Source: Saccharofermentans sp. (GTDB lineage Bacteria; Bacillota; Clostridia; Saccharofermentanales; Saccharofermentanaceae). Taken from it: DNA of 64,000 nt. Shown in pieces: positions 2,993 to 25,091 of the stretch (the stretch's first letter is position 1; every line of letters begins with the position of its first letter). Location: contig JAILNR010000041.1 in the NCBI GenBank assembly GCA_024691325.1, positions 22,292-86,291 of the forward strand. Direction: 5' to 3'. The position numbers and the translations under genes are program-made. Below the pieces are notes generated by a model. It had not been told where the DNA came from. It searched no databases and saw only the letters and a list, made by a program, of their open reading frames with translations.

Positions 2993-4900
2993 GTGAAACG
3001 CACGGAAGATAATATCTTCGATAATTACGAGAAGAAATCTCGCAAGGGTGTCGGGCATATCGCATCGGCAATAGTGTGCGGTGTGATGATTGTCGCGATC
3101 ATAGGTGTCCTTATATGGATAAACTCGACTTTGAAGATAGAATCCGGTGTTGTTCCTGACTTTCAGGCTGCTATGGATGAAGGGCGTTATACTGATGCTC
3201 TTGATATCTACCGCAGCGTTCACGATATTGTCGTAGCATCCGATGACTCCGCTTTGGCTGAGGATTCTACTTTGCAGATGCAAAGGGCACAGATGGCCCA
3301 GATGGAGCAGATAGTTAATGAGAGACTCCTGTCCATCGAAGAGCAGATGAGAACCTCCCGTTATACGCCTTCGACGGTTGATCTGAGGTTCATGAATGAG
3401 ATGGGGGAACTGACATCGTCCCAGATATCTATTTGGCTTAACGATCTTAGTACGGAGTTTTTGCTCGGTACGATAGAGAAGCCTGACCTTGTTTTTATTT
3501 TCGAGCAGATGAGCCAGGTCGGTAATGTCTCGGCTACCACAACCCCTTTGCTTCATGAGATAGAGACGATCGAGATGGCAAGAGGTGAGGTTCAGGCAGC
3601 GGAGGCTTCTTTTGACGAAGGTGACTATGTAGCCTCGGTTCACGGATATGAGCTTGTATGTCAGAACTATGAGGGATTTGTTTATAACTACGCAGTCAAC
3701 AGGCTTACTGAAATCAAGGACATAATGTATGAGCCGATGCTTGCCGAGGGTGAGCATATGCTCGAGCGTTACAGGTATTTTTCTGCTGAGTCGCTTCTTT
3801 CGGATCTTGCAGTTATTTTCCCTGATGATAACCGTATTAATTCGGATCTTCTTGAGGCCACGAGCCATACCACGCAGGTTGCCGAATATACGGGTACTGT
3901 TGAGGTCCTGAGCATAAGGCAGCTTATTGCGGATCCTTCAAGGGGGGCTTCCAATACAGGTCTTTATCTGTCGACTGATGAGTTTACGAGGATGCTTGAG
4001 CAGCTTTATGCCAATGACTATGTTCTTGTGGATGCCGAGACAATGGCGGATATGAGTGAGGACACTTTCATGACCGAGGTTAACCTGACGGTGCCTGTAG
4101 GAAAGAAGCCTCTTATACTTGTGCTTGATACATTTGACTATAATGCGGGCAGCACTTATAACTACGGTCTGTGCACACAGCTTGCTCTCGATGAACAAGG
4201 CAATGTGGTAGGTCAATATGTGGCTCCGGACGGCACGCTTGTTTCCGGCAGAGATCTGGAGGCCATAGGTATTCTTGACGCGTTCGTGGAAGCGCATCCC
4301 GACTTCTCCTTTGACGGCGCGAAAGGTGTTATCTCGATATGCGGATACGAATCCGTATTCGGCTATGTTATAAGTTCGGATGAGGCTGATGACAGGTCTG
4401 AGGCTCTTGCTAATGTGGGAAGACCTAACGTTACATTTACAGAGAACGAGATTGCAGCGAACAGACAGACTGTCTCCGAGATAATGAGTGTTCTTCAGGA
4501 TACAGGCTGGAAACTCGCGTCATCAACGTATGGCAACATCAATGCTTTTGAAGCTGATATGGATACGATAGTTGCCGATACACAGAAATGGATGGATCAG
4601 ATCGAGACTTTGATAGGTGATGTCCATATCATTGTTTACCCGGGCGGTAACTATATCTACGGTACTGATCCGAGAGCCCAGTATCTTAAGGAGAACGGAT
4701 TCAGGATCTTCTTCGGAATGGGTTATAACCCGTATCATATTTATGGTGATAACTATCTTTACTATGACCGTACTCCGATAAGCGAATCAACGCTCGCGAC
4801 TAATGATTATTCGAGATTGTTTGATGTTACGTTGATACTTGATTCATATGTCAATGCTGTAGTGCCGGCGGATGAGACACAGCAGCAGGAAACGGTCTAG
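2993..4900 (+). CDS. Membrane-anchored polysaccharide deacetylase-like protein
   Basis: This 635-aa protein has a short basic cytoplasmic tail, one transmembrane helix (about residues 20-45), a helical extracytoplasmic region (about 50-290) and a C-terminal domain that looks like the NodB/polysaccharide deacetylase fold (about 300-620). Fold hints are the YLSTDEF segment, a KPLILVLDTFDY strand where active enzymes have TFDDG, and the late strand HIIVYPGG. The second Asp of the TFDD pair is Tyr here and no HxxxH zinc motif is obvious, so catalytic activity is doubtful. The GTG start directly follows the TAA of the topoisomerase gene (zero gap), suggesting cotranscription. It probably acts at the cell envelope; the substrate is unknown. 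Confidence 0.6.
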   Translation: MKRTEDNIFDNYEKKSRKGVGHIASAIVCGVMIVAIIGVLIWINSTLKIESGVVPDFQAAMDEGRYTDALDIYRSVHDIVVASDDSALAEDSTLQMQRAQMAQMEQIVNERLLSIEEQMRTSRYTPSTVDLRFMNEMGELTSSQISIWLNDLSTEFLLGTIEKPDLVFIFEQMSQVGNVSATTTPLLHEIETIEMARGEVQAAEASFDEGDYVASVHGYELVCQNYEGFVYNYAVNRLTEIKDIMYEPMLAEGEHMLERYRYFSAESLLSDLAVIFPDDNRINSDLLEATSHTTQVAEYTGTVEVLSIRQLIADPSRGASNTGLYLSTDEFTRMLEQLYANDYVLVDAETMADMSEDTFMTEVNLTVPVGKKPLILVLDTFDYNAGSTYNYGLCTQLALDEQGNVVGQYVAPDGTLVSGRDLEAIGILDAFVEAHPDFSFDGAKGVISICGYESVFGYVISSDEADDRSEALANVGRPNVTFTENEIAANRQTVSEIMSVLQDTGWKLASSTYGNINAFEADMDTIVADTQKWMDQIETLIGDVHIIVYPGGNYIYGTDPRAQYLKENGFRIFFGMGYNPYHIYGDNYLYYDRTPISESTLATNDYSRLFDVTLILDSYVNAVVPADETQQQETV

Positions 4901-4975: not shown

Positions 4976-5428
4976 ATGGCAAAAACTGACAGATTGTCTG
5001 AATATGTTAATGAACAGCCGATTCTTTGGCACGACAGAAGACGTTACTTAGGTCTTCCAATCTCATTTACAAGATATAGTTTTGATAAAGATAAGTTTTA
5101 TCTGAAGAAGGGACTTTTCAATACAAGTTCTGATGAGATCCTTCTTTACAGAGTCCTTGATGTCAGACTTTTAAGAAGCTTCTGGCAGAAGATATTCGGT
5201 GTCGGAACCATAGTTCTTAAGACAGCCGACCAGACAACTCCTTTATTGGAGATCAAGAGTGTCAAGGATTCTGAGCGTGTAAGAACTGCACTCAGTAATA
5301 TCGTTGAGAACGAGCGTAACGAGAAGAGAGTTCTTGGTAAGGAAATGTTCGGTGCTGCCGGACATCATGATCTCGATCTTGACGGCGACGGACTTGCAGA
5401 TCATATTGACGCAGATCTTTTAAATTGA
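4976..5428 (+). CDS. Bacterial PH-domain-like protein
   Basis: This 150-aa soluble protein resembles the bacterial pleckstrin-homology (bPH, DUF304-type) family: an alternating beta pattern across residues 20-115, with strands around FTRYSFDKDKFYLKKGLF and RVLDVRLLRS, followed by a helix with charged residues. The C-terminus carries an acidic DLDGDGLADHIDADLL segment that resembles a calcium-binding dockerin-like loop, although only one copy is present. There are no membrane helices. It has a strong GGAGGG ribosome site and its own likely promoter. It lies 17 bases upstream of the sirtuin gene and is probably cotranscribed with it. The family is recognised from pattern only and the function is unknown. 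Confidence 0.6.
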   Translation: MAKTDRLSEYVNEQPILWHDRRRYLGLPISFTRYSFDKDKFYLKKGLFNTSSDEILLYRVLDVRLLRSFWQKIFGVGTIVLKTADQTTPLLEIKSVKDSERVRTALSNIVENERNEKRVLGKEMFGAAGHHDLDLDGDGLADHIDADLLN

Positions 5429-5445
5429 TAATGGCAGGGTAATAA

Positions 5446-6315
5446 GTGGAGACCAGGTTAGACAGGTACGAGGGAGCAAGAGCAGCGAAGATAGCTGAAC
5501 TTCGTGAGCTTATCGAGAAGTCCAAGAAGATTGTTTTCTTGGGCGGTGCCGGTGTTTCCACGGAAAGCGGAATCCCTGATTTCAGAAGTGGTGATGGTAT
5601 CTATAATCAGGAGAGTGGTCTTAATTACAGGCCTGTCGATATCATCTCCCATTCTTTCTTTGTTGAACATCCTGAAGAGTTCTATGACTTTTACAGAAGA
5701 AAGCTTCTGTATCCTGATGCCAAGCCGAATAAAGCACACAAGGCTCTGGTCAGACTTGAGCGTCAGGGCAAGCTTATGGCTATCATTACGCAGAATATCG
5801 ATAAGCTCCATCAGGATGCGGGGTCCAAGTGTACGATCGAACTTCACGGCTCTGTATTCAGAAACCACTGTATGGAGTGCGGTAAGAAGTTTAAACTTGA
5901 CTATATCCTTGCTACCGAGGGCGTTCCTCACTGCGACAGATGCGGCGGTATGATTCGTCCCGATATTACCTTATATGAAGAGAATCTCGAGCATGATAAG
6001 GTCGATGCAGCTATCAAGGCTTTGAAGAAGTGCGATCTTCTTATCATCGGCGGAACTTCTCTTACGGTTTATCCTGCTGCAACCTTTTCTCAGTTTATTA
6101 AGCATAACAATATGGTTATCATTAATAAATCTTCCACATATCTTGACCTTTCCGCGATGCTTACTATTCACGACAGCATTGGAGATGTACTTGATTCTGC
6201 CATTCCCAAGAGGAAGAAGAGATCAGACGCAGGCAAGAAGAGGAAGAAGACTACAACAAAGAAGACAACGGCTAAGAAGACCACTTCCAAAAAGCCGGGT
6301 ACGGATAAGAAATGA
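5446..6315 (+). CDS. cobB: Sir2-family NAD-dependent protein deacylase with lysine-rich tail
   Basis: This sirtuin removes acyl groups from protein lysines using NAD+. The signatures are complete: GAGVSTESGIPDFRS at 34-48 (NAD binding), QNID at 116-119, catalytic His134 in the LHGS motif, and four zinc-ligand cysteines at 142, 145, 163 and 166. The start is GTG after a GCAGGG ribosome site. The odd part is the last 35 residues (255-289), which are almost all Lys, Arg and Thr in repeated KKTT units, like a histone H1-type tail, and are absent from ordinary bacterial CobB. The stop overlaps the ATG of the next gene (ATGA), so the two are translationally coupled. Confidence 0.92.
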   Translation: METRLDRYEGARAAKIAELRELIEKSKKIVFLGGAGVSTESGIPDFRSGDGIYNQESGLNYRPVDIISHSFFVEHPEEFYDFYRRKLLYPDAKPNKAHKALVRLERQGKLMAIITQNIDKLHQDAGSKCTIELHGSVFRNHCMECGKKFKLDYILATEGVPHCDRCGGMIRPDITLYEENLEHDKVDAAIKALKKCDLLIIGGTSLTVYPAATFSQFIKHNNMVIINKSSTYLDLSAMLTIHDSIGDVLDSAIPKRKKRSDAGKKRKKTTTKKTTAKKTTSKKPGTDKK

Positions 6316-8093
6316 CAGATTTTTTCTCAAAGGAAGCTTCGGCACTTAAAGAACAACAGCAGGAATTAGACAGGAAGAACCGCAGATTAAGTCTACTGCG
6401 GCTCGTTTTTTTTGTGCTTTTCGCAGGGGGCGGAATAGCAGGTTTTGTTAAGGGATATAATCCGGGTTTGTTTGCGGTAAGTGCTGCGGCTCTTATCGTG
6501 TTTGGCGTTCTTTGTTATGTGCATGGTAAATCCAAGCGTAAGGCGGCTTTTGTAGAGGCTAAGATAGTATCTAATGACAGATATCTTGCAAGAGCCGTAG
6601 GTGATTATTCCAAGTTCGAAGATGACGGTAAGGAGTTTACTAATCACTCTCATTCGTATTCTTCTGATCTTGATCTTTTTGGCTCGCATTCTATTTACGA
6701 ACTGTATAACGTTTCTCACTCTGTATGGGGCAGGAAGGCGTTTGCTGACAAGCTTACGGGGAAGGACATAATGTCTTTGGATAAGAAGACTATCCTCGAG
6801 AGGCAAAAGGCTGTTAAGAAACTTTCAGAAGATCCCGGATTCCTTCTTGATTATGAGGCGACAGGTATGATCAATCCTATTACGAAGGTCCCGGAGGCAC
6901 TCATCAGATTGTGTTCTAAGAGTAAAAAGATACCTTCATCCTATAAGCTTCTTTATAAGCTTATCCCGTTGATCTGGCTTGTTCCTTTGATCTTGCTTTT
7001 TATGGGCAAGGGAGGATATGCAAGGATTGCTGCTTTGCTTGTAATCCTTATCAATCTTGTAATCTGGTTTGTTATGACGAAGATGGAGTTTACGGACATC
7101 TTCAAGGCGGGACTTATATCTAAGCAGGCGGTTGCCGTTAAGAAGCGCATTGAACTTATTATGAGTGAAGATGGCAGAAAGCAGCTGTTTGTTCCTGAGT
7201 ATTTAAGTGATGAGTCTTCTGTAGAGGCGGAAGAACTTATCAGGGCTTGTAATCTTTGTTCCGTAAGGGAACAGCCAATCTCTGCTTTGATTCTTAATTC
7301 TGTTATGCCGTATGACCTTATGTGTGCTGACAGACTTATTGACTGGGCTTGTAAGTACGGAGAGTCTTTTATCGGCACGATCGGTTCGTTAGGTCAGATT
7401 GAGAGTTTGATGTGTGCATGTGTTCCGGGGCTTGTCTCGGATAATGCTTGCTATCCTTCGATAAATGAGGAAAAGAGTGCTTATTTTAAGGGGACCGATA
7501 TGGTTCATCCTTTGCTCGATCCTTCTTCGGTGGTGTCGAATTCCGTAACTATCGATTCACAGGTTGCTCTTATAACCGGATCTAACATGAGCGGTAAGAC
7601 AACTCTTATAAGAACTGTAGGCATTATGTGTGTTTTGGCTTATACAGGATCTATGGTTCCCGCATCATCTGTTGATCTGTCGGTAATGAGGATAATGACT
7701 TCGATGAGAATTGCTGACAGTCTTGAGGAGAGTATGAGTACATTTAAGGCTGAACTTGTACGCATCGGTTCGATCGTGAAGGCGGCATCTGATGAGAAGC
7801 CTTTGCTCTTCCTTATTGATGAGATATTCAGGGGAACTAATTCCCAGGATAGGACTGACGGAGCCGAGATGGTGTTGAAGAACCTGTCAAAACCTTATAT
7901 ATCAGGCTTCATGACTACTCACGACTATGCTCTTTGTGACAGGATCGTTGAGCAAAAGTATGAAGGCATAATATTCTGCCATTTCTCCGAGAGGTATGAA
8001 GGGGATAACATCATATTTGACTATACGCTCAGAGACGGGCTTTCCCATGAATCCAACGCAAAATTCTTAATGAATCTTGTCGGTATAAAATGA
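6312..8093 (+). CDS. Membrane-anchored MutS-like ATPase
   Basis: This 593-aa protein combines membrane helices with a MutS-type ATPase domain. Two hydrophobic helices lie near the N-terminus (about 30-46 and 51-71) and two more at about 213-231 and 238-256. The C-terminal third is the MutS family domain V ATPase: Walker A GSNMSGKT at 423-430, Walker B LFLIDE around 499-504, and the conserved THD at about 536-538. The mismatch-recognition and connector domains of true MutS are missing, so it should not be called a mismatch repair protein. Similar membrane-bound MutS-related ATPases occur in Firmicutes without a settled role. It overlaps the sirtuin gene by 4 bases. Confidence 0.8.
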   Translation: MTDFFSKEASALKEQQQELDRKNRRLSLLRLVFFVLFAGGGIAGFVKGYNPGLFAVSAAALIVFGVLCYVHGKSKRKAAFVEAKIVSNDRYLARAVGDYSKFEDDGKEFTNHSHSYSSDLDLFGSHSIYELYNVSHSVWGRKAFADKLTGKDIMSLDKKTILERQKAVKKLSEDPGFLLDYEATGMINPITKVPEALIRLCSKSKKIPSSYKLLYKLIPLIWLVPLILLFMGKGGYARIAALLVILINLVIWFVMTKMEFTDIFKAGLISKQAVAVKKRIELIMSEDGRKQLFVPEYLSDESSVEAEELIRACNLCSVREQPISALILNSVMPYDLMCADRLIDWACKYGESFIGTIGSLGQIESLMCACVPGLVSDNACYPSINEEKSAYFKGTDMVHPLLDPSSVVSNSVTIDSQVALITGSNMSGKTTLIRTVGIMCVLAYTGSMVPASSVDLSVMRIMTSMRIADSLEESMSTFKAELVRIGSIVKAASDEKPLLFLIDEIFRGTNSQDRTDGAEMVLKNLSKPYISGFMTTHDYALCDRIVEQKYEGIIFCHFSERYEGDNIIFDYTLRDGLSHESNAKFLMNLVGIK

Positions 8094-8173: not shown

Positions 8174-9874
8174 ATGGCATTAGAGCAATTAGACAATTAT
8201 GGGGCTTTGATTGTTGATTACTCTTTTATTAAGGAATTCGGGGCTACCACTTTATTGACCGAATTACTTGATATTGCGACCAACGGTCACAAAGATGTAT
8301 ATGTAAGCAAAGCCTTCAAATTACTTCATTATTGTGTTATCCACCAGGCGGATGATATTTCCGTTTCTGTGTCTGATGCCATGCGTGAGTTTGCAGCAAT
8401 ACTGCTCCCTGAGAAGCTTTTGCATTCTTTCCCCGCTTTAAACACCGAGGATTTCTTTGAGAAAACTTCACAGATTCCCAACGCTTGTATTGTAACGGCT
8501 TCCACAGGTATCTTCATAAAGAGGATACGCGAGAAGCTTCCTGCTTATATTGGTGATATCTGCGTAATAAGCCCCGAAGGAGATATCAATTACTATCATG
8601 GCATCTCTGAATTGCTCGCAGATTTTCCCGCCGTTGAGATAAGTCCTCTTGCAACTTTGGACAAGTATCTTGATGCACCGGTCAATTGCAATGTCGGTGA
8701 TACTGTTGTTACAAGTACGGGAAAGAGGATCACTCTCGAGAAGAGGTTAAGCGCTGGAGCTGAAGGAATGGTATTTACCACCAATGATCCCAAGATAGTA
8801 GCTAAGATCTATCACAAGGGAATCATCACGCCTTTGCGCTGGAAGAAGCTTCAGACTCAGGTGAAGATGGGAATCAATGCCGTAGGTCTTTGCTGGCCGA
8901 AGGATCTTATTTCCTATAGAGGTGTTCCTGTCGGATATACCATGATCATGGGCAAGGGAAGAACATTGGGAAATGTCTTCGACGGACCTGATGCTTTGCT
9001 TAACTCATTCCCTAACTGGAAGAGGATCGATATCGTATCAACCCTTGCAGATATCCTTGAGAAGTATATCTATCTTCATATGAACGGTATAATCGCAGGC
9101 GATATTCAGATGAAGAATGCTCTTATCTATTCTGCGAATGCCATCTATCTTATCGATATGGACAGTGTGCAGGTTGAGAACCTTCCTTGTCCTGTTGGAA
9201 CAGAGGAATTTACAGACCCGAGATTATGGGGAACTGATTTTGCATCTTTCTTGAGGAAACTCGAGGACGAGGATTATTCCATCGCCATGCTGGTATTCTC
9301 TTTGCTGTTCTGCGGACTGCATCCTTATGCAACAAGAAACGGTGCAGAGACTTTACGTGAAGAGATACTTAACAAGAAATTCCCTTATGAACTTGATAAT
9401 TCTTCGGATGATCATATTCCGAAGGGTGGTTACAACTATATTTGGGAGTATTTGCCTGAAGATATCAGAACTATGCTCTATGGAACATTCCGTGAGGGTA
9501 AGTCTTTTGAAGCATTGAAGTGGTATGAGACAGTGGTTAACTATAAAGAAGCGCTCTCGTCTGAAGCATATGAGGACCCTGAGGCTTATAAGGCTTTCCC
9601 TAAGATGGATTATGTGGCAACAAATCCTGATCCCGTGGTAAAACCCAGATTCACACCTGCGGCTAATGCAACAGCGGCTCCAACTTCGCCGTTTGCTCCC
9701 AAGACGCAGCCTTCTTCCGGTACATCATTTACGCAGAGGAACGGGCAGGGGAACTACAACAAGTTTTATATCAATACCGATCCGGTCCCGAAGCCGGATG
9801 ACAAGAAAAAAACTGACACCAATGGTGGTAAGAATGATGGCGGACTAAGAGGTCTGTTCAAGAACAGGAGATAA
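8174..9874 (+). CDS. Atypical protein kinase, YegI-like, with N-terminal unknown domain
   Basis: This 566-aa protein contains an atypical Ser/Thr kinase domain (about 185-440). It has a glycine loop near AGAEGMV (194-200), the ATP-binding Lys211 in VAKIY, a GDIQMKN catalytic loop (Asp310, Asn315) in place of HRDxKxxN, and DMDS (328-331) in place of DFG. This GD...N plus D-x-D pattern is typical of the YegI-like kinases that accompany a vWA protein and a PP2C phosphatase. Residues 1-170 form a separate alpha/beta domain, possibly PIN-like (VDYSFI, IVTAS), that I cannot assign. The tail (480-566) is Pro/Ala/Asn-rich and ends in basic residues. It is first in a tight four-gene operon. Confidence 0.75.
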   Translation: MALEQLDNYGALIVDYSFIKEFGATTLLTELLDIATNGHKDVYVSKAFKLLHYCVIHQADDISVSVSDAMREFAAILLPEKLLHSFPALNTEDFFEKTSQIPNACIVTASTGIFIKRIREKLPAYIGDICVISPEGDINYYHGISELLADFPAVEISPLATLDKYLDAPVNCNVGDTVVTSTGKRITLEKRLSAGAEGMVFTTNDPKIVAKIYHKGIITPLRWKKLQTQVKMGINAVGLCWPKDLISYRGVPVGYTMIMGKGRTLGNVFDGPDALLNSFPNWKRIDIVSTLADILEKYIYLHMNGIIAGDIQMKNALIYSANAIYLIDMDSVQVENLPCPVGTEEFTDPRLWGTDFASFLRKLEDEDYSIAMLVFSLLFCGLHPYATRNGAETLREEILNKKFPYELDNSSDDHIPKGGYNYIWEYLPEDIRTMLYGTFREGKSFEALKWYETVVNYKEALSSEAYEDPEAYKAFPKMDYVATNPDPVVKPRFTPAANATAAPTSPFAPKTQPSSGTSFTQRNGQGNYNKFYINTDPVPKPDDKKKTDTNGGKNDGGLRGLFKNRR

Positions 9875-9879
9875 TTGAT

Positions 9880-10605
9880 ATGGCTGAGAACAACATTAAT
9901 GCATCGGATTTTGGAAGCAGCACTAAGAGAAGACTTCCTATTTGTTTTTGCCTTGATACATCAGGATCGATGATGGGTGCTCCTATACAGCAGCTTAATC
10001 AGGGTCTTAATAACTTCATCGCATCAATTAAAGCCAATGACGATACAAGATCAGCTACGGATATCGCTATCGTAACGTTCGGTTCTTCCGTTGAGATTGT
10101 AATGCCCTTCGGTAAGATCTCTGAAGAGGGACTTCCCGAGATTAAGGCATCTACTACGATGACTCCTATCGGTGAAGGAATTCTTACTGCTTTGGAGCTT
10201 CTTAATGCACGTAAGGAAGGCTATAAGGAGCAGGGAATCAAGTACTATCAGCCCTGGCTTGTCGTTATTACTGACGGTGCACCTCAGGGCCCTAATGCTA
10301 TGGCAAATATGGAACTTGCCATCAAAGCATGTAATGAACTTGAGAAAGACGACAAACTCGTTATCTTCAATATCGGTGTAGGAAACAGCGTGGATTTTGA
10401 CATCTTAAAGAGAGTATCAGTAAAAAGAGAGGAGCCTATCTCAGTTACATCAGGTGACTTCGGTAAGCTCTTCGAATTCTTAGGCTCCTCGAGTTCATCT
10501 GTTGTTTCATCCGGTATGAGTGATGACGCTTTGTATAACATATCTACTGAACCTGAAGGTGAGTCAGTTGATATGGACGATTTTATGAAATTCATGGAAG
10601 ATTAA
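9880..10605 (+). CDS. TerY/YegL-like von Willebrand factor A domain protein
   Basis: This 241-aa protein is essentially one vWA domain with an intact metal-ion-dependent adhesion site: DTSGSM at 26-31, the threonine of TTMTP at 92-96, and TDG at 131-133. It has no signal peptide, so it is cytoplasmic, as expected for the TerY/YegL group rather than for adhesins. The C-terminal 45 residues are Ser-rich and then acidic. The gene begins 5 bases after the kinase gene and ends 4 bases before the phosphatase gene. In the TerY-P triad the vWA protein is thought to serve as a partner or substrate for the kinase and phosphatase; that role here is inferred from context. Confidence 0.85.
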   Translation: MAENNINASDFGSSTKRRLPICFCLDTSGSMMGAPIQQLNQGLNNFIASIKANDDTRSATDIAIVTFGSSVEIVMPFGKISEEGLPEIKASTTMTPIGEGILTALELLNARKEGYKEQGIKYYQPWLVVITDGAPQGPNAMANMELAIKACNELEKDDKLVIFNIGVGNSVDFDILKRVSVKREEPISVTSGDFGKLFEFLGSSSSSVVSSGMSDDALYNISTEPEGESVDMDDFMKFMED

Positions 10606-10609
10606 TTAA

Positions 10610-11755
10610 ATGTCATCTATTACAGTATCCGCAGTAACATTAATGGGACAGAAGCACCACAACCGTGGTGTTCCTTGTGAAGATTCATCAATCGCAGTTC
10701 AAAGAGACGGTGTCTCCTGCGTTGTTGTCTGTGACGGTGCGGGATCTAAGCAGTATACACATGCCAGATTTGGTTCTAAGTCTGCTTGTGATACTATCTC
10801 GGATCTTCTTATTGATCACTTTGACGCACTTTATAACGAGAACAGGGAAGCTGCCGTACGTGCCATGGTAATTGCAGCAATTCATGTAGGCTTTGCTAAT
10901 CTTATGGAACAGTACAAGCTCGATAAGGTTGAGAGACTTTCCTGTACTCTACTTTTCTGTGCAGTAAAAGACAGAAGAATGCTTATCGGACACTTAGGAG
11001 ACGGTCTTATCGCCGGCGTATCTCATTCGGGTGTTCACCCCGTTACGATGCCTCAGAACGAGAAGGACGGAACAACGTTCTTTGTTACTGTTCCTCATGC
11101 TGCCGATTACTTGAGAATCGTTAAGACGACCATTGATGACTACCATGGAATCGCACTTATGACTGACGGTGTTCAGGATAATGTCTATGACGAGAATACA
11201 GGTCTTGTTAAACCTGTAGTTGCACGTATGGTAGAGTCCGCAGCTAAGGGAAGAGAGCAAAGCGAGACTGAGATAAAGGACATCCTTTCCAAGTATATAG
11301 TAGGCTCATCCAACAACAGTGATGACGCTTCTTTTGGAATAGTTTTTTTCGATGGGACCAAGGCCCCGGATTCGAATGAGCTTCCTAAGGAGGCGGATGC
11401 TTTTCCGAGAGCTAATGAGACCTTTAAGGAACTTCAGGCAGCAATGTTCCCTGAAGTAAAGAAAGCAAAGGCAGTGATGGAAGCATGCGCTTCCAATCCT
11501 CCTGCGGAGCCTGTTGCAGTAGGCGACGAATTGCCTGAGGGCGAAGCTCCACTTAAGCCTGTTCCCGCAGCACCTGCTCCTACGGCATTTAAACCGGAAC
11601 AGCCTGCCGCTGCTGTCTCTGAGCCTGTTAAGGCTGCACACCATGAGACTTCGAAGAAGTCGGAAAGAACATCGGTACTTTTCAAGGTTATTGCTTTGGT
11701 TGAACTTGTTGCTATAATTCTGTTATTGATAAAAATATTTGTTTTAAAGGGTTAA
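10610..11755 (+). CDS. PP2C-family phosphatase with C-terminal membrane anchor
   Basis: This 381-aa protein is a metal-dependent Ser/Thr phosphatase of the PP2C type. Metal-binding acidic residues are seen at ED (24-25), DGAGS (42-46), the GD pair at 130-131, TDG (185-187) and DD (238-239), in the pattern of the YegK group. Residues 260-350 are a Pro/Ala/Glu linker. The last 28 residues form a transmembrane helix followed by Lys-Gly, so the enzyme is probably tail-anchored with its catalytic domain in the cytoplasm. It is expected to oppose the kinase encoded two genes upstream. The membrane anchor is not a usual feature of YegK and may localise the whole module. Confidence 0.85.
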   Translation: MSSITVSAVTLMGQKHHNRGVPCEDSSIAVQRDGVSCVVVCDGAGSKQYTHARFGSKSACDTISDLLIDHFDALYNENREAAVRAMVIAAIHVGFANLMEQYKLDKVERLSCTLLFCAVKDRRMLIGHLGDGLIAGVSHSGVHPVTMPQNEKDGTTFFVTVPHAADYLRIVKTTIDDYHGIALMTDGVQDNVYDENTGLVKPVVARMVESAAKGREQSETEIKDILSKYIVGSSNNSDDASFGIVFFDGTKAPDSNELPKEADAFPRANETFKELQAAMFPEVKKAKAVMEACASNPPAEPVAVGDELPEGEAPLKPVPAAPAPTAFKPEQPAAAVSEPVKAAHHETSKKSERTSVLFKVIALVELVAIILLLIKIFVLKG

Positions 11756-11760
11756 GATAT

Positions 11761-12558
11761 ATGAGCAGAGAAGAAAAAAAATACGAGATACTTCCTGGTA
11801 CTAAGACACCTGATATTAAAGATATAGTTAATGCTGCATCGGATTTTACAAATCCCGGTGTTGATTCGGTTGCTATTAAGGGCGGTGAGTTCAGAAAGAC
11901 ACTTGCGCCTGAAGAAGAGAGATTACAGATCTCGAATGATGATATTTCCAAGCTTCAGGATCTCGGCAATGAGGTTGCCGTTGAAGAGGTTCGTGCTATG
12001 GAAGAGTCTCGTAAGAAGATGGCAGAGATCAAGAAGCAGGTTATTGCACCTGAGTCTATCGAGACACTTTCCAAGACTGCGGCTTCTATAAATATGAGCG
12101 AAGAGAAGCGCGAGATACTCGAGAAGGAAAGAGCCGAGAAAGAAGCCAGGAAGGCTGAGGAAGAGGCTAAGCGTCAGGCAAGAGAAGAAAGAAGACTTGC
12201 CCAGCAGAAGGCTTTGGAAGAGACACTTTCGAAGAAGGCTGCTGCTGAAGAAGAGGCACGCAAGAAGCTTGAGCAGGAAGAAGCCAAGCTCAAGAAAGAA
12301 GAAGAGCAGAAGCGTATGGAAGAGGCAGAGAATATCCGCAAGCAGAATGCTGAGGAGAATGCCAAGAGAGACGCGCAGGCTAAGAAAGAGCGTGACGAGG
12401 AATATAAGGCTTGGGTTGAGGCTAAGCGTAAAGAAGCGCAGGACAATGAAGCTGCGAAGACAAACGCTGATGAAGAGAAGAAAGAACCTCAGAAGGCCGA
12501 GAAGCCTGAGAAGTCTGAAGATGATGATACTTTGGATGAGTTCTCTGAGTTCCTCTGA
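11761..12558 (+). CDS. Charged coiled-coil protein of the kinase-phosphatase operon
   Basis: I do not recognise a family for this 265-aa protein. It has no signal peptide or membrane helix. Residues 1-75 are mixed and include several Ser/Thr residues. Residues about 75-240 are an almost uninterrupted Glu/Lys/Ala/Arg helix with few helix breakers, typical of a long single alpha-helix or coiled coil. The last 20 residues are acidic (SEDDDTLDEFSEFL). It starts 5 bases after the phosphatase gene with an AAAGGG ribosome site, so it is the fourth member of the operon. It may be a scaffold or substrate of the kinase; that is inference from position only. Confidence 0.65.
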   Translation: MSREEKKYEILPGTKTPDIKDIVNAASDFTNPGVDSVAIKGGEFRKTLAPEEERLQISNDDISKLQDLGNEVAVEEVRAMEESRKKMAEIKKQVIAPESIETLSKTAASINMSEEKREILEKERAEKEARKAEEEAKRQAREERRLAQQKALEETLSKKAAAEEEARKKLEQEEAKLKKEEEQKRMEEAENIRKQNAEENAKRDAQAKKERDEEYKAWVEAKRKEAQDNEAAKTNADEEKKEPQKAEKPEKSEDDDTLDEFSEFL

Positions 12559-13530
12559 TTATCTTGTTACTACGATTAATTCAGCAAGAATATAGACAAT
12601 ATCAATAATCAAAGTAAACAGTGATATGACCAGCATAGTCTTGGGTACAGAGAACCCGAGTTTCTTCTTAAGGTGGTCGTGAACCGGCGTGATCAACTTG
12701 GGAAGAATGATTATCTTCTTATGTGTGAGTCTTCCGATAGTTATCTTAAGGATGGATAATCCTCCGTCTATCAGGAAAGGAAGTCCGAGGACAAGGTAAG
12801 CAATCGGGAGCTTTAAATACATAAAGTAAAAAGCCAGGAAGAAACCGATAGCCCTTGAACCTGCATCTCCCATGAGAACCTTTGACGGATAATGGTTGAA
12901 GAACAGATAAGCTATGAGGATCACTATCATTACTGCACCGTAAAGTGCGGTGGAAAGCGTAAGAGTACCGTGGATCCAGGCTGCCGTCATTAAAGTTGCT
13001 GCGGTTAGTATAGTAACTGTTGCGGAAAGACCGTCTACTCCGTCGGTTGCGTTTGTCGCATTAATGGAAACAATGAAAAGTATTGTTGCAAGTAATATGT
13101 AAACTACAGGATGCAGATAATAAGTGCCCGGAAGGAATGAAAGCAGGAAATCCGTTCCGAAGAATCTCATGACTATAAGACTTCCGATGAAGGCCACTAC
13201 GATATCAAGTATGCCTTTGGAAAGTTCGCCCCATGCATTCTTCGATCTGTCATCGAGAAAACCTATAAGAGACATTAACAACATGATATTGAGAATGAGA
13301 TACATTCCTCTGTTATGGATTCCGAACTCAGCACAGACGAATACGAAGATCATTGTGAAATAAATACCGACTCCCGTAGGCTTTCCGATATTGACTTCTG
13401 ATCCCTCAACATATTTACGGCCGCGGTCGTGGCCAAGCAGGGTTTTTCCGAATGGCAGGAAAAACAGTGCGATAAACGTTGATATTGCGCCTGTAACACA
13501 GGCTAATATAATTCTGGTAAGTTCGGACAT
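12559..13530 (-). CDS. mraY: MraY-family phospho-sugar transferase
   Basis: This polytopic membrane enzyme belongs to the polyprenyl-phosphate N-acetylhexosamine-1-phosphate transferase family and most resembles MraY, which makes lipid I for peptidoglycan. It is 323 aa with about ten helices. Motifs seen: FLDD (Asp93, Asp94), NATDGVDG (160-167) and MGDAGS (220-225, Asp222). The usual MraY HHH motif reads PVHDH (282-286), a variant I recall from other Clostridia. The start is taken as ATG 13530, because GAGG lies 5 bases before it and would overlap the GTG at 13536. It stands outside a cell-division cluster. Its TAA abuts the TGA of the convergent gene with no gap. Confidence 0.8.
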   Translation of the reverse strand: MSELTRIILACVTGAISTFIALFFLPFGKTLLGHDRGRKYVEGSEVNIGKPTGVGIYFTMIFVFVCAEFGIHNRGMYLILNIMLLMSLIGFLDDRSKNAWGELSKGILDIVVAFIGSLIVMRFFGTDFLLSFLPGTYYLHPVVYILLATILFIVSINATNATDGVDGLSATVTILTAATLMTAAWIHGTLTLSTALYGAVMIVILIAYLFFNHYPSKVLMGDAGSRAIGFFLAFYFMYLKLPIAYLVLGLPFLIDGGLSILKITIGRLTHKKIIILPKLITPVHDHLKKKLGFSVPKTMLVISLFTLIIDIVYILAELIVVTR

Positions 13531-13560
13531 AAACACCTCAATAAGCCTTTTAACCGTGTA

Positions 13561-21568: not shown

Positions 21569-22825
21569 ATGCTGTATGACAAGAGTTTTGAAAGGTTCAA
21601 ATTCAGTACTGATCAGTATATTGACCAGGCGAAAGTATCTGAACTTCACAGAGAGTACGCCGATTTTACAAAGCAGCTTCTTATGGGTGACTATAAGAAA
21701 GTCAATACTGCTATGTACGGCTATGAGCAGAAGGGGAGCAAAGCCTCAGGAATAATCTTCGCAGTAATCTTCATATCCGCTATGGCTGCGATTATCGCGT
21801 TTGCCTTGATGAAGAACATAACGGGAGTTATTCTGTCTTTTACCGGGATTTTCCTTTTTGCCGGAATCATGTTGCTTTTGGGTAAAGCATTAATAGCTAA
21901 ACAGAGTAATACTTCCAAAGAGCGTTTAAAGATGAGGCTCAGAGGCTTTATTATAACTGCTGTTTGTGTATCGATTATTGCCATTGTACTTAACAAGGAT
22001 AAGTTTCAAGGCGTTCAAATGTATATTTTACTTGCTGTTATCCTGTTTGGTGCTGCAGCTTTGTGGCTTATACTCTTTGCTTTTGTTGATGTTTTTGCAA
22101 AGATGTTTTTATACAGGGAGACGGTTGATGCCAAGTGTATCGGCTATGTAAGAATTGTCGATTCTGAAGGCTCGACTAATGAAAGTATAAATGTCCGCAA
22201 ACGTTTCTTCTATATCATGACATCGCCGGTGTTCGAATACACTTATAACGGCCGTCAAATTGAGGCTTTGTATGATGACCTGGTTGTGAATAATAATTCT
22301 GATGTTGCTTTGGGTACATATGAGACCATCAGAATTAATCCGAATCATCCTGAGGATATCTACTCGCCGAGGGCTACGAAGATTAATTCGGCCGCTTATG
22401 TCATATTTGGTATGTTCGCAGCAGTAGCTGCTATTGCTATTGCCATCTTAGGATTAAGTCCGAATGCCAATGTTACTTACGAAGGTCCTGCCGTGTCGGA
22501 TTCAGGTCTTATTGTAGTGGGTGATGAAGAGATCGAAGAATCTTATGCGTCTGATATTAACGGTCAGGATTGGTATATCGAGACCTTGGTGATAGACACC
22601 GCAGAAACCGAAGGTGATTATCTTATTCTCCGCTTCGATGATCCGGGTATGAGAGCCTTAAGAATTCCGGCCGATTCCGGTTATGCCGCAGGTGACAGTA
22701 TTATCGTTCTTTATACTATTGATGATGAATGGCTCGATGAGGGCGTTCAGTACAAAGATTCATTCATTTTCATAAATCCTGGAGAGTATGAGTATCAGGG
22801 AAATCACGGGGCTTATGAAGGTTGA
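21569..22825 (+). CDS. Multi-pass membrane protein with DUF3592-like domain
   Basis: This 418-aa protein has about five membrane helices: a pair at about 50-110, two at about 128-195 and one at about 275-300. The loop between the fourth and fifth helices (about 195-270) is a beta-rich segment with FEYTYNGRQIEALYDD and IRINPNHPEDIYSP, a pattern known from DUF3592-type proteins. The C-terminal 100 residues are extracytoplasmic or cytoplasmic beta structure rich in Asp and Glu. It has its own extended -10 promoter and a GGGGGAG ribosome site. It overlaps the start of the following membrane-protein gene, suggesting they work together. The function is unknown. Confidence 0.6.
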   Translation: MLYDKSFERFKFSTDQYIDQAKVSELHREYADFTKQLLMGDYKKVNTAMYGYEQKGSKASGIIFAVIFISAMAAIIAFALMKNITGVILSFTGIFLFAGIMLLLGKALIAKQSNTSKERLKMRLRGFIITAVCVSIIAIVLNKDKFQGVQMYILLAVILFGAAALWLILFAFVDVFAKMFLYRETVDAKCIGYVRIVDSEGSTNESINVRKRFFYIMTSPVFEYTYNGRQIEALYDDLVVNNNSDVALGTYETIRINPNHPEDIYSPRATKINSAAYVIFGMFAAVAAIAIAILGLSPNANVTYEGPAVSDSGLIVVGDEEIEESYASDINGQDWYIETLVIDTAETEGDYLILRFDDPGMRALRIPADSGYAAGDSIIVLYTIDDEWLDEGVQYKDSFIFINPGEYEYQGNHGAYEG

Positions 22826-25091
22826 CAGGATAAAGTCCATTTTCCAGATCTTTGTCATTTGGCAAATAGCTTTATGCTTTGTAATAGGCGCAGTGATTTC
22901 TATAACGCCTGTGTTTCTTCCTGAGTATGATGAATTGATGGTTCAGAAGAGTCTATTCCGTGACAGCGGGATGATAGGACCTATCGATCATGGCTCAGCT
23001 GTAAGAAGTGAAAGCTTTGCTCTTGATAAGGGCAATTATATTCTTAATGTAAATTATTCGTGTACTTCTGAGAATAACTATATCTCGGTCGTTTCAGATA
23101 CACTTGATAATGAAGGTTATCTTAACGAACGGTGGCAGAATACTGTAGTATCAGATCATTCTATTACAATTGGTTTTACGCTTGATTCCTATGTTGATGA
23201 TTTGAGTGTTGCAGTTATTAATAATGATGATTATGAGTTCTTTATTACTGATATTAATGTAATGTCTAACACGGAGGTGTCATCTGCTCCGCCGACAATT
23301 CTGGCGAGATTCTTATCAACTCTTTTATTGACCGGTGTATTCTTCGGATTGTTCGACCTCTTAATATACAAGTGTATTAATGACCGGAAGGTTCTGAAGA
23401 TATACGGGCTGCTTTTTGTTATTTCCATGGTCTTGATTTTACCTTTGTTAAGACCCGGATTATATAACGGTAATGATCTGGCATTCCATGTAATGAGAAT
23501 ATACGGTATCAGAGACGGATTATTGAACGGGCATTTCCCCGTTAAGCTTCAGAGCCAGTGGTACGGTGGATATGGTTATCCTGTCGGCGCATTTTACGGA
23601 GACTTCCTCCTTTATATTCCAGCTCTGATGAGTATTATAGGAATACCTGTTACTTTCGCATATAAATTTACTTTGTTCTTTGTACAGCTGCTAACTGTTT
23701 TTACTTCGCACGATTGCTTCAAGGGAATTATTTATTTCATTTCATCAGGTAATAAGATAAAGGAATCTTCATACAGATTGGAATGTTTCTCGATTTGCGG
23801 TGCGGCAGCTTATGCAGGTATGTTCTTCAGGTGTATCACGCTTTACGAGGCGACTATCGGTGAACTGTTAGCTGCGGCTTTTCTTCCTTTTATAGCTTTT
23901 GCTTTTGTTCTTTTGATCAAGGGAAGACGCATTCAATCTATTATGATGTTTGTGATAGGTTTTACGGGCCTTATTAATACGCATATCCTTACTACTGCGA
24001 TGGTAGTAGTTTTTCTTGTTATTTTCAGTCTGGTCTTTTGTAAATACATATTTAATAAATACAATTTGTGTACTTTGCTGATTGCTGCTTTAGCCGTGAT
24101 TGTAACTAATCTGCACTTTATCGTTCCGTTCGTTGATATGTCTATGGATGACATAGATATCATGTCGTCCGGACATAGTGCTGAACTCATACAGGATAAA
24201 GGTGCTGACACGATTGGTTTCTTTACCGATGATATCTATAATGTGACAATCAGGGTAATATTGTTGCTTGTAACTGTGTTCGTCGTGGTCCAGATAGTCC
24301 GTCTTCTCAAGCATGACAGGACAGTATCCCTTAATAAATTTTATCCTTTGATATCGTTAATGATGATTACGCTTTTAAGTCTCATTATGTGTACTTACTC
24401 TTTCCCTTGGGACCTTCTGGCACAGATACCGGTTGCAGGAAAGTATGTTGGTGTGCTGCAGTTTCCGATGCGTTTCCTTCAAATCGCAGATTTGCTGTCA
24501 GTACTTATGATGATTGAGTACTTCAGAGTTCGTGATGAAGGTATAGTTATTAAGAAACTTTCAACCAGGAATCTTGTTATCGGACTTCTTCTGTTCTTCG
24601 TAATTGGAGGTACAGTTTTCAGTTTCAGACAATATAGACCTGTGGATAGGGTTTCATATGATGCTGAAGTCAATATTCATTCGGATTGGATCAGCGGTGA
24701 TGAGTATCTTCTGACCGGAACGAACCCGCACGATCTTCCTTCTCTTGAGGCATGTTTAGCCCGGGCTCCTGAAGTTGTGGTAAGTGATGTTAACAGGGCC
24801 GGAGATTCGATCTTTGTCTATTACAGTTCCAATGAGAACTGCGAAGTGGAATTCCCACTGTTTAATTACAGGCATTACAGGGCATATCTCATGACTTATG
24901 ACGGAAAGACTTCACTTGATATTTTAAACGGAAATAACAATAGGATCAGTCTTATACTTCCTCCCACTGATGATGGAGCTGTGAATGTCAGGTTTGTGAC
25001 TCCCTGGTATTGGCATTGTTCATACATAGTGAGCTTGGCCGGTGCAGTATTAATAATATATAAATATATTAAAAACAAAGCGCGTTCTTAA
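22815..25091 (+). CDS. GT-C-like integral membrane protein (YfhO/PTPS-related type)
   Basis: This polytopic protein of about 758 aa has an N-terminal helix, an extracytoplasmic domain (about 45-160), some ten further helices and a C-terminal soluble domain followed by one last helix. The segment NGNDLAFHVMRI with FPVKLQSQWYGGYGYP resembles the first-loop acidic motif of GT-C glycosyltransferases and the 6-pyruvoyl-tetrahydropterin synthase-related membrane family, which often transfer sugars from polyprenyl phosphate to surface glycans or lipoteichoic acids. The start is uncertain: ATG 22788 and 22815 both have imperfect ribosome sites. It overlaps the upstream membrane-protein gene by 11 or 38 bases. 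A terminator follows the stop. Confidence 0.6.
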   Translation: MKVDRIKSIFQIFVIWQIALCFVIGAVISITPVFLPEYDELMVQKSLFRDSGMIGPIDHGSAVRSESFALDKGNYILNVNYSCTSENNYISVVSDTLDNEGYLNERWQNTVVSDHSITIGFTLDSYVDDLSVAVINNDDYEFFITDINVMSNTEVSSAPPTILARFLSTLLLTGVFFGLFDLLIYKCINDRKVLKIYGLLFVISMVLILPLLRPGLYNGNDLAFHVMRIYGIRDGLLNGHFPVKLQSQWYGGYGYPVGAFYGDFLLYIPALMSIIGIPVTFAYKFTLFFVQLLTVFTSHDCFKGIIYFISSGNKIKESSYRLECFSICGAAAYAGMFFRCITLYEATIGELLAAAFLPFIAFAFVLLIKGRRIQSIMMFVIGFTGLINTHILTTAMVVVFLVIFSLVFCKYIFNKYNLCTLLIAALAVIVTNLHFIVPFVDMSMDDIDIMSSGHSAELIQDKGADTIGFFTDDIYNVTIRVILLLVTVFVVVQIVRLLKHDRTVSLNKFYPLISLMMITLLSLIMCTYSFPWDLLAQIPVAGKYVGVLQFPMRFLQIADLLSVLMMIEYFRVRDEGIVIKKLSTRNLVIGLLLFFVIGGTVFSFRQYRPVDRVSYDAEVNIHSDWISGDEYLLTGTNPHDLPSLEACLARAPEVVVSDVNRAGDSIFVYYSSNENCEVEFPLFNYRHYRAYLMTYDGKTSLDILNGNNNRISLILPPTDDGAVNVRFVTPWYWHCSYIVSLAGAVLIIYKYIKNKARS

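What the first reader, a model, noticed from the sequence alone, without database searches (positions are those of the whole stretch)
8174..12558. YegIKL/TerY-P-like kinase-vWA-PP2C operon with an added coiled-coil partner and membrane anchor
Four genes spaced by 4-5 bases encode an atypical kinase (GD...N catalytic loop and D-x-D in place of DFG), a TerY/YegL-type vWA protein with intact metal site, a PP2C phosphatase and a long charged coiled-coil protein. The first three match the YegI-YegL-YegK triad of E. coli and the TerY-P triad described in tellurium-resistance and stress systems. Three things are unusual: the PP2C carries a C-terminal membrane helix, the kinase has an extra N-terminal domain, and the fourth gene is an unassigned coiled-coil protein that may be a dedicated scaffold or substrate. 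No TerD-type genes are nearby.
Basis: partly seen in the sequence, partly recalled or inferred. Interest (0 to 1): 0.75.

Follow-up and report, generated by a model that had tools for sequence, protein, structure and literature searches.

The report
Rumen clostridial membrane phosphorylation switch operon
In Saccharofermentans and related gut bacteria, four neighbouring genes encode a kinase-like protein, a vWA protein with a metal-site signature, a PP2C-type phosphatase and a coiled-coil protein that likely work together as an on/off protein-phosphorylation switch at the cell membrane, and whose kinase is predicted to descend from a mobile, defence-type module.

Summary
The genes at 8174-12558 encode a kinase (KIN), a YegL/TerY-type vWA protein, a PP2C phosphatase and a coiled-coil protein (CC), spaced 5, 4 and 5 bases. 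KIN, vWA and PP2C align with E. coli YegI, YegL and PphC; D-x-D is a trait of that kinase class. KIN was found in 74 of 148 genomes of the order, all in one family (Saccharofermentans and sister genera); in the loci examined the order KIN-vWA-PP2C-CC is kept at a largely syntenic housekeeping locus. KIN probably also reaches the membrane: C-terminal hydrophobic helix in 13 of 19 sister loci, short basic-hydrophobic tail in the window's genus. The vWA lacks the W-containing tail of 11 outgroup vWAs and carries a DDFxxF tail instead; CC in this genus often ends in a similar motif. Best reading: a domesticated, membrane-held YegI-type switch with a dedicated adaptor. All biochemistry is untested. 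New variant of a known kind.

The parts
8174..9874 (+). KIN: YegI-class Ser/Thr kinase-like protein, 566 aa
8174..8680 (+). KIN residues 1-169: predicted PIN-like N-terminal domain; D15 kept, the other two aligned PIN acids replaced
   Evidence: AF2 models, fold search, alignment with PIN-kinase relatives, family invariants
8699..9604 (+). KIN residues 176-477: kinase domain (K211, D310, N315, D328-x-D330)
9635..9871 (+). KIN residues 488-566: predicted disordered linker ending in a basic-hydrophobic tail (GLRGLFKNRR), inferred membrane-targeting
   Evidence: pLDDT under 50; tail statistics and hydrophobic helix at the same place in sister genera
9880..10605 (+). VWA: YegL/TerY-type von Willebrand A protein with intact MIDAS signature
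10513..10602 (+). VWA residues 212-241: family-specific tail in place of the W-containing tail of outgroup vWAs; DDFMKFM at 10576-10596
10610..11755 (+). PP2C phosphatase with complete metal-site Asp set
11678..11746 (+). PP2C C-terminal predicted transmembrane helix (about residues 357-379)
   Evidence: hydropathy
11761..12558 (+). CC: coiled-coil partner protein, 265 aa
11761..12060 (+). CC residues 1-100: conserved N-terminal core; the first part (KKY...P-D...I..AASDF) is recognisable in the five genera sampled
12535..12555 (+). CC C-terminal motif DEFSEFL, similar to the VWA tail
4976..8093 (+). upstream context: bacterial PH-domain, Sir2 and MutS-V genes, syntenic in most loci
12559..13536 (-). 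downstream context: MraY/WecA-type glycosyltransferase gene on the other strand, then ArgS and an M3 peptidase, syntenic in most loci that reach that far

Best explanation
This operon encodes a YegI/YegL/PphC-type kinase-vWA-PP2C triad plus a conserved coiled-coil partner, which likely works as a reversible Ser/Thr phosphorylation switch held at the inner face of the membrane. Shown by sequence: the four proteins, their homologies, the complete PP2C metal site and vWA MIDAS signature, the kinase core residues and the kept gene order. Predicted: the PP2C membrane helix, and a PIN fold for the N-terminal domain of the kinase. Inferred: (1) that domain lost nuclease activity and now senses a ligand or docks a partner, using the family-invariant residues S17, F48, K49, H52 and R117 and the nearly invariant D15; (2) the basic-hydrophobic kinase tail binds the membrane, because most sister loci carry a hydrophobic helix at the same place, so kinase and phosphatase share one surface; (3) the kinase would phosphorylate itself, the vWA protein and/or CC, and PP2C would reset them; (4) the vWA tail (DDFxxF) and the similar CC tail would dock on one shared site, letting CC compete with or be handed over from vWA as adaptor or output. 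The module was probably derived from PIN-kinase-vWA-PP2C modules of the kind now seen on plasmids, and became a core gene set of this bacterial family.
Confidence: 0.6

Rival explanations
1. The operon is still an anti-phage or conflict module of the TerY-P or kinase-phosphatase defence type, merely fixed in this family.
For: The three PIN-kinase relatives studied outside the family sit beside transposase, recombinase or relaxase genes (for L187 recombinase- and methylase-like frames read by eye). TerY-P modules accompany restriction systems and OB-fold kinase relatives act in defence (PMC11090510 passages).
Against: PADLOC matches only weak, best E 0.005; core and largely syntenic; vWA 79-99% identical to the window's across the genus, unlike fast-evolving defence genes; aligned PIN acids lost.
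Confidence: 0.15
2. CC is a client or a loosely coupled disordered protein, and the likeness of its tail to the vWA tail is coincidence between acidic C-termini.
For: CC middle is variable and charged (mean majority fraction 0.32 for residues 166-250); strict motif in only half of genus CCs; other proteins can carry the motif at their end.
Against: CC kept beside the triad in the five genera sampled with a conserved N-terminal core; tail conserved again after the variable stretch (0.65 for residues 251-265); in the own genome 3 of 10 motif matches are C-terminal in a long frame and 2 of those are these adjacent genes.
Confidence: 0.3
3. A soluble metal-sensing stress switch of the published TerY-P idea, with the vWA MIDAS as metal sensor and no membrane role for the kinase.
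For: Intact MIDAS signature; the TerY-P triad is hypothesised to be a metal-sensing phosphorylation switch (PMC11090510 passages).
Against: No TerD gene in the genome, no zinc ribbon on the kinase, hydrophobic C-terminal helix on PP2C in all but one truncated protein and on KIN in 13 of 19 sister loci.
Confidence: 0.2

Closest known systems
E. coli YegI-YegL-PphC (YegK) system
   Same: Homologous kinase with D-x-D, homologous vWA and PP2C, linked genes; YegI reported membrane-bound (PMC13232886 passages)
   Different: YegI starts directly with the kinase domain; YegL ends in the GW tail; PphC is 253 aa against 381; yegJ lies between pphC and yegI in K-12, and no CC-like gene was seen in the 16 kb fetched (one 97-residue frame at E 0.0015, taken as chance)
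TerY-P triad (kinase-zinc ribbon, TerY vWA, PP2C)
   Same: Kinase, vWA and PP2C as neighbours
   Different: No zinc ribbon on the kinase, no TerD in the genome, different vWA tail, added CC
   Same: N-terminal PIN or PIN-like domain, same kinase class, same gene order with two vWA genes in G338
   Different: PIN acids present in the relatives; zinc-finger C-termini in two of the three over Pfam cut-off; mobile context; W-containing vWA tails and no CC found
Kinase-PP2C-vWA sets in GAP1-N2 conflict systems
   Same: Kinase fused to zinc ribbon or TM helices beside PP2C and a standalone vWA (PMC7159879 passage)
   Different: No GTPase family among the neighbours annotated here

Membership tests
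YegI-YegL-PphC type triad | YegI-class kinase domain with GD...N loop and D-x-D | tested here: met
   hhalign prob 98.6 to YegI; residues invariant in 42 sequences
YegI-YegL-PphC type triad | YegL-type vWA with MIDAS signature | tested here: met
YegI-YegL-PphC type triad | PP2C with metal-site aspartates encoded next to the kinase and vWA | tested here: met
YegI-YegL-PphC type triad | Kinase autophosphorylates and the PP2C dephosphorylates it | not testable with these tools
   reported for E. coli in PMC13232886 passages; no assay here
YegI-YegL-PphC type triad | Kinase at the inner membrane | tested here: inconclusive
   hydrophobic helix in 13 of 19 sister loci, basic tail in this genus; no localisation data
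TerY-P triad, strict sense | Kinase fused to a C-terminal zinc ribbon (definition in PMC11090510 passage) | tested here: not met
   no zinc-finger family in KIN; residues 488-566 predicted disordered
TerY-P triad, strict sense | TerD-type genes in the genome | tested here: not met
   0 matches to PF02342
PIN domain superfamily (KIN residues 1-150) | PIN fold | tested here: met
PIN domain superfamily (KIN residues 1-150) | Recognised by a PIN sequence profile | tested here: not met
   no PIN family in KIN or 3 relatives' N-domains; three relatives outside the family do match PIN_4
Active PIN nuclease | Conserved acidic active site | tested here: not met
   by alignment only D15 kept; positions of the aligned Glu and second Asp are H52 and about T111
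Known anti-phage systems | Matches a PADLOC model with a clear score | tested here: not met
   best E 0.005

The most novel reading that the evidence does not exclude
A mobile PIN-kinase-vWA-PP2C defence-type module was captured once by the ancestor of this bacterial family and turned into a core membrane signalling system: the PIN nuclease died and became the kinase's sensor, the vWA traded its W-containing tail for a DDFxxF docking tail, and a new coiled-coil partner came to mimic that tail so that vWA and CC compete for one receptor and set the output.
Probability: 0.3. Interest if true: 0.75.

Novelty: new variant of a known kind. Interest (0 to 1): 0.52.

Why it matters
YegI-YegL-PphC and TerY-P triads occur in many bacteria, but what they sense and what they control is not settled in anything I saw. 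Here the triad is a core operon of one bacterial family with two family-specific handles: a predicted pseudo-PIN sensor, and a linear tail of a kind seen on two adjacent gene products. These make the input and output sides directly testable with peptides and point mutants. If the domestication reading holds, it would be a case of a nuclease-kinase conflict module reused as a membrane regulator.

Tried and rejected
Rejected: D-x-D as an oddity of this kinase, because YegI and L187 share it. Rejected: CC as phage cargo; no tblastn match in the phage collection. Rejected: strict co-variation of vWA and CC tails; the acidic extensions after the motif go together within the genus but follow lineage, and g13 breaks the pattern. 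Rejected: motif exclusivity, since 4 other C-terminal matches in long frames exist in four genomes; five further matches near a stop in frames of under 60 residues were left out of that count. The reversed control pattern gave 1, 4, 5 and 4 matches against 10, 15, 7 and 4, so raw counts alone show little. Rows dropped: L027 and L045 from the kinase alignment, L045 from the CC one, L027 and L039 from the vWA one; the structure alignments hold the window's kinase and 41 or 23 of the 80 found. An early note counted 14 of 19 sister kinases with a TM helix; the counted value is 13 of 19.

Full report
WHAT IS THERE. Four + strand genes at 8174-9874, 9880-10605, 10610-11755 and 11761-12558 are spaced by 5, 4 and 5 bases. 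The second and third have clear Pfam families (VWA E 6e-16, PP2C_2 E 4e-33); the first matches Pkinase only weakly (E 0.0023) and the fourth matches nothing. The own genome has no TerD match. It has two other frames over the Pkinase cut-off and one other over the PP2C_2 cut-off, so this triad is not its only candidate Ser/Thr phosphorylation system. The neighbourhood is housekeeping: topoisomerase subunits, Sir2 and MutS-V genes upstream; a MraY/WecA-type transferase, ArgS, an M3 peptidase, an RsmF-like methyltransferase and a Ham1 protein downstream.

DISTRIBUTION. Titles of related contigs name Saccharofermentans sp., Clostridiales, Ruminococcaceae and Mageeibacillus records, many from rumen or faeces. 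KIN is found in 74 of 148 genomes drawn from the order, all 74 in one family, one match each save G127 with a second partial one; the only listed family member without it is G122 (87% complete), and 54 further no-match genomes are not listed. In a class draw, 9 of 291 match: 8 of this family and one outlier, G338, with the kinase domain only. In a phylum draw a vWA of this type (E 1e-20 or better) is in 6 of 398 genomes, the own one and five others; all five have a kinase of the class beside it. CC was found in 23 of 40 near relatives, 22 besides the own genome; all 23 are of this genus, and the one genus member missing is 64% complete. A single g13 CC as query finds 54 of 98 family genomes, because CC diverges fast.

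GENE ORDER. In 22 genus loci all four genes lie in the same order wherever the contig allows; L027 and L045 are cut by contig ends, and in L039 the vWA gene reads in two frames. In 80 genome-contig loci, which partly overlap those genomes, KIN and vWA are in 80, PP2C in 78 and CC in 76. L061, L122 and L128 are cut by contig ends. In L112 a module of about 6 kb with response-regulator-, histidine-kinase- and ABC-transporter-like frames (read by eye) lies downstream of vWA, and PP2C follows just beyond the fetched stretch on the same strand; CC was not sought there. In 19 sister-genus loci, some from the same genomes as L126-L135, the order is again complete, with weak but positioned CC matches, 20 to 55 bits. 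Flanking genes bPH, Sir2, MutS-V, MraY-like, ArgS and M3 peptidase are syntenic in most loci that reach far enough; L186 shows no Sir2 match and a more distant MraY-like gene.

MEMBRANE. By hydropathy (19-residue Kyte-Doolittle mean over 1.6 near the end), PP2C ends in a membrane helix in 67 of 67 genus, 19 of 19 sister-locus and 9 of 10 L126-L135 proteins, the tenth (L128) being cut by its contig end. KIN has no such helix in 70 of 70 genus proteins but has one at its C-terminus in 13 of 19 sister loci and 3 of 10 L126-L135 proteins; of the six sister loci without, five end in basic tails and L174 in a weakly hydrophobic end. Genus KIN tails (KKKFFGLF, GLRGLFKNRR and similar) have net charge +2 to +5 in the last 12 residues with a median of four F/L/I/W/M, after a linker of median charge -1; over the last 16 residues the charge ranges from -1 to +4. 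They resemble amphipathic membrane-targeting tails of the MinD kind (recalled, not tested). The simplest reading is that both enzymes act at the membrane.

TAILS. Of 11 distinct outgroup vWAs, E. coli YegL included, none has the motif; 9 carry GW and 2 DW or AW near the end. In this family that end is replaced. In the genus the new tail carries D[DE]Fxx[FY] plus I, L, M or V in 70 of 70 vWAs; in L126-L135 it is DDFFKAI or similar, 0 of 10 by the strict pattern. CC ends in the strict motif in 33 of 66 complete genus proteins and in a looser [DE]F..F in 49 of 66; sister genus g13 has DFLDF-like ends, and the short CCs of g12, g14 and g15 have neither. A genome-wide DNA pattern scan gave 10 matches in the own genome, 1 for the reversed control pattern; 3 lie at the C-terminus of a long frame: vWA, CC and one other. 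In three more genomes 26 matches (13 for the control) gave 8 such cases, 5 of them vWA or CC. Two adjacent genes sharing so rare an end is suggestive of a common docking site, but the unevenness in CC keeps this at the level of a hypothesis.

MECHANISM. Kinase and phosphatase would be held at the membrane and the pseudo-PIN domain would set kinase activity. vWA, through its MIDAS and tail, and CC, through its conserved N-terminal core and tail, would be substrate, adaptor or both, with PP2C resetting the state. Shown: anatomy, homology, conservation, order. Predicted: folds, membrane helices. Inferred: membrane binding of the short KIN tail, sensor role, docking, direction of phosphorylation, descent from a mobile module.

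RIVALS AND NOVELTY. A still-active defence module is less likely because the genes are core, largely syntenic and conserved and PADLOC scores are weak. Chance likeness of the tails is possible. A soluble metal switch is possible but fits the membrane helices poorly. By the published definition of TerY-P, kinase plus C-terminal zinc ribbon (PMC11090510 passages), this is not TerY-P in the strict sense. It is a new variant of the YegI/YegL/PphC kind. Kinases with TM helices beside PP2C and vWA genes are already in print for another context (PMC7159879 passage).

Noticed in passing
window 4976-8093: bPH-domain, Sir2 and membrane MutS-V-type genes stay directly upstream of the triad in most loci of the family; a functional link to the switch is possible.
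   Followed up: partly
L026, L028, L029, L043, between the MutS-V gene and KIN: A gap of about 1.4 kb, room for an extra gene, where the window has 80 bases; most sister loci show a similar gap.
   Followed up: no
L112:6727-12717: A two-component plus ABC-transporter-like module (read by eye) sits between vWA and PP2C in this genome.
   Followed up: partly
L187:5533-10682; L227:4077-7995; L228:4098-9098: PIN-kinase-vWA-PP2C modules beside recombinase, transposase or relaxase genes; L228 has a fourth gene with a weak DnaJ match (E 9e-4, under cut-off).
   Followed up: partly
window 2993-4900 and 22788-25091: ORFs of 635 and 767 aa without a Pfam match at E 1e-5; the first is kept next to the bPH gene in many relatives.
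   Followed up: no
L043:7395-8681: CC of this relative (429 aa) has repeated EEPxFxDL-type stretches and an extra EDFFASL motif, as if the tail motif had multiplied.
   Followed up: no
L224, L225: Two frames in genome G005 end in DEFEEFISKHK and DEFEKFLK, similar to the vWA/CC tail motif.
   Followed up: no
L039:11698-12404: The vWA gene of this relative reads in two frames (true break or assembly error); left as found.
   Followed up: no
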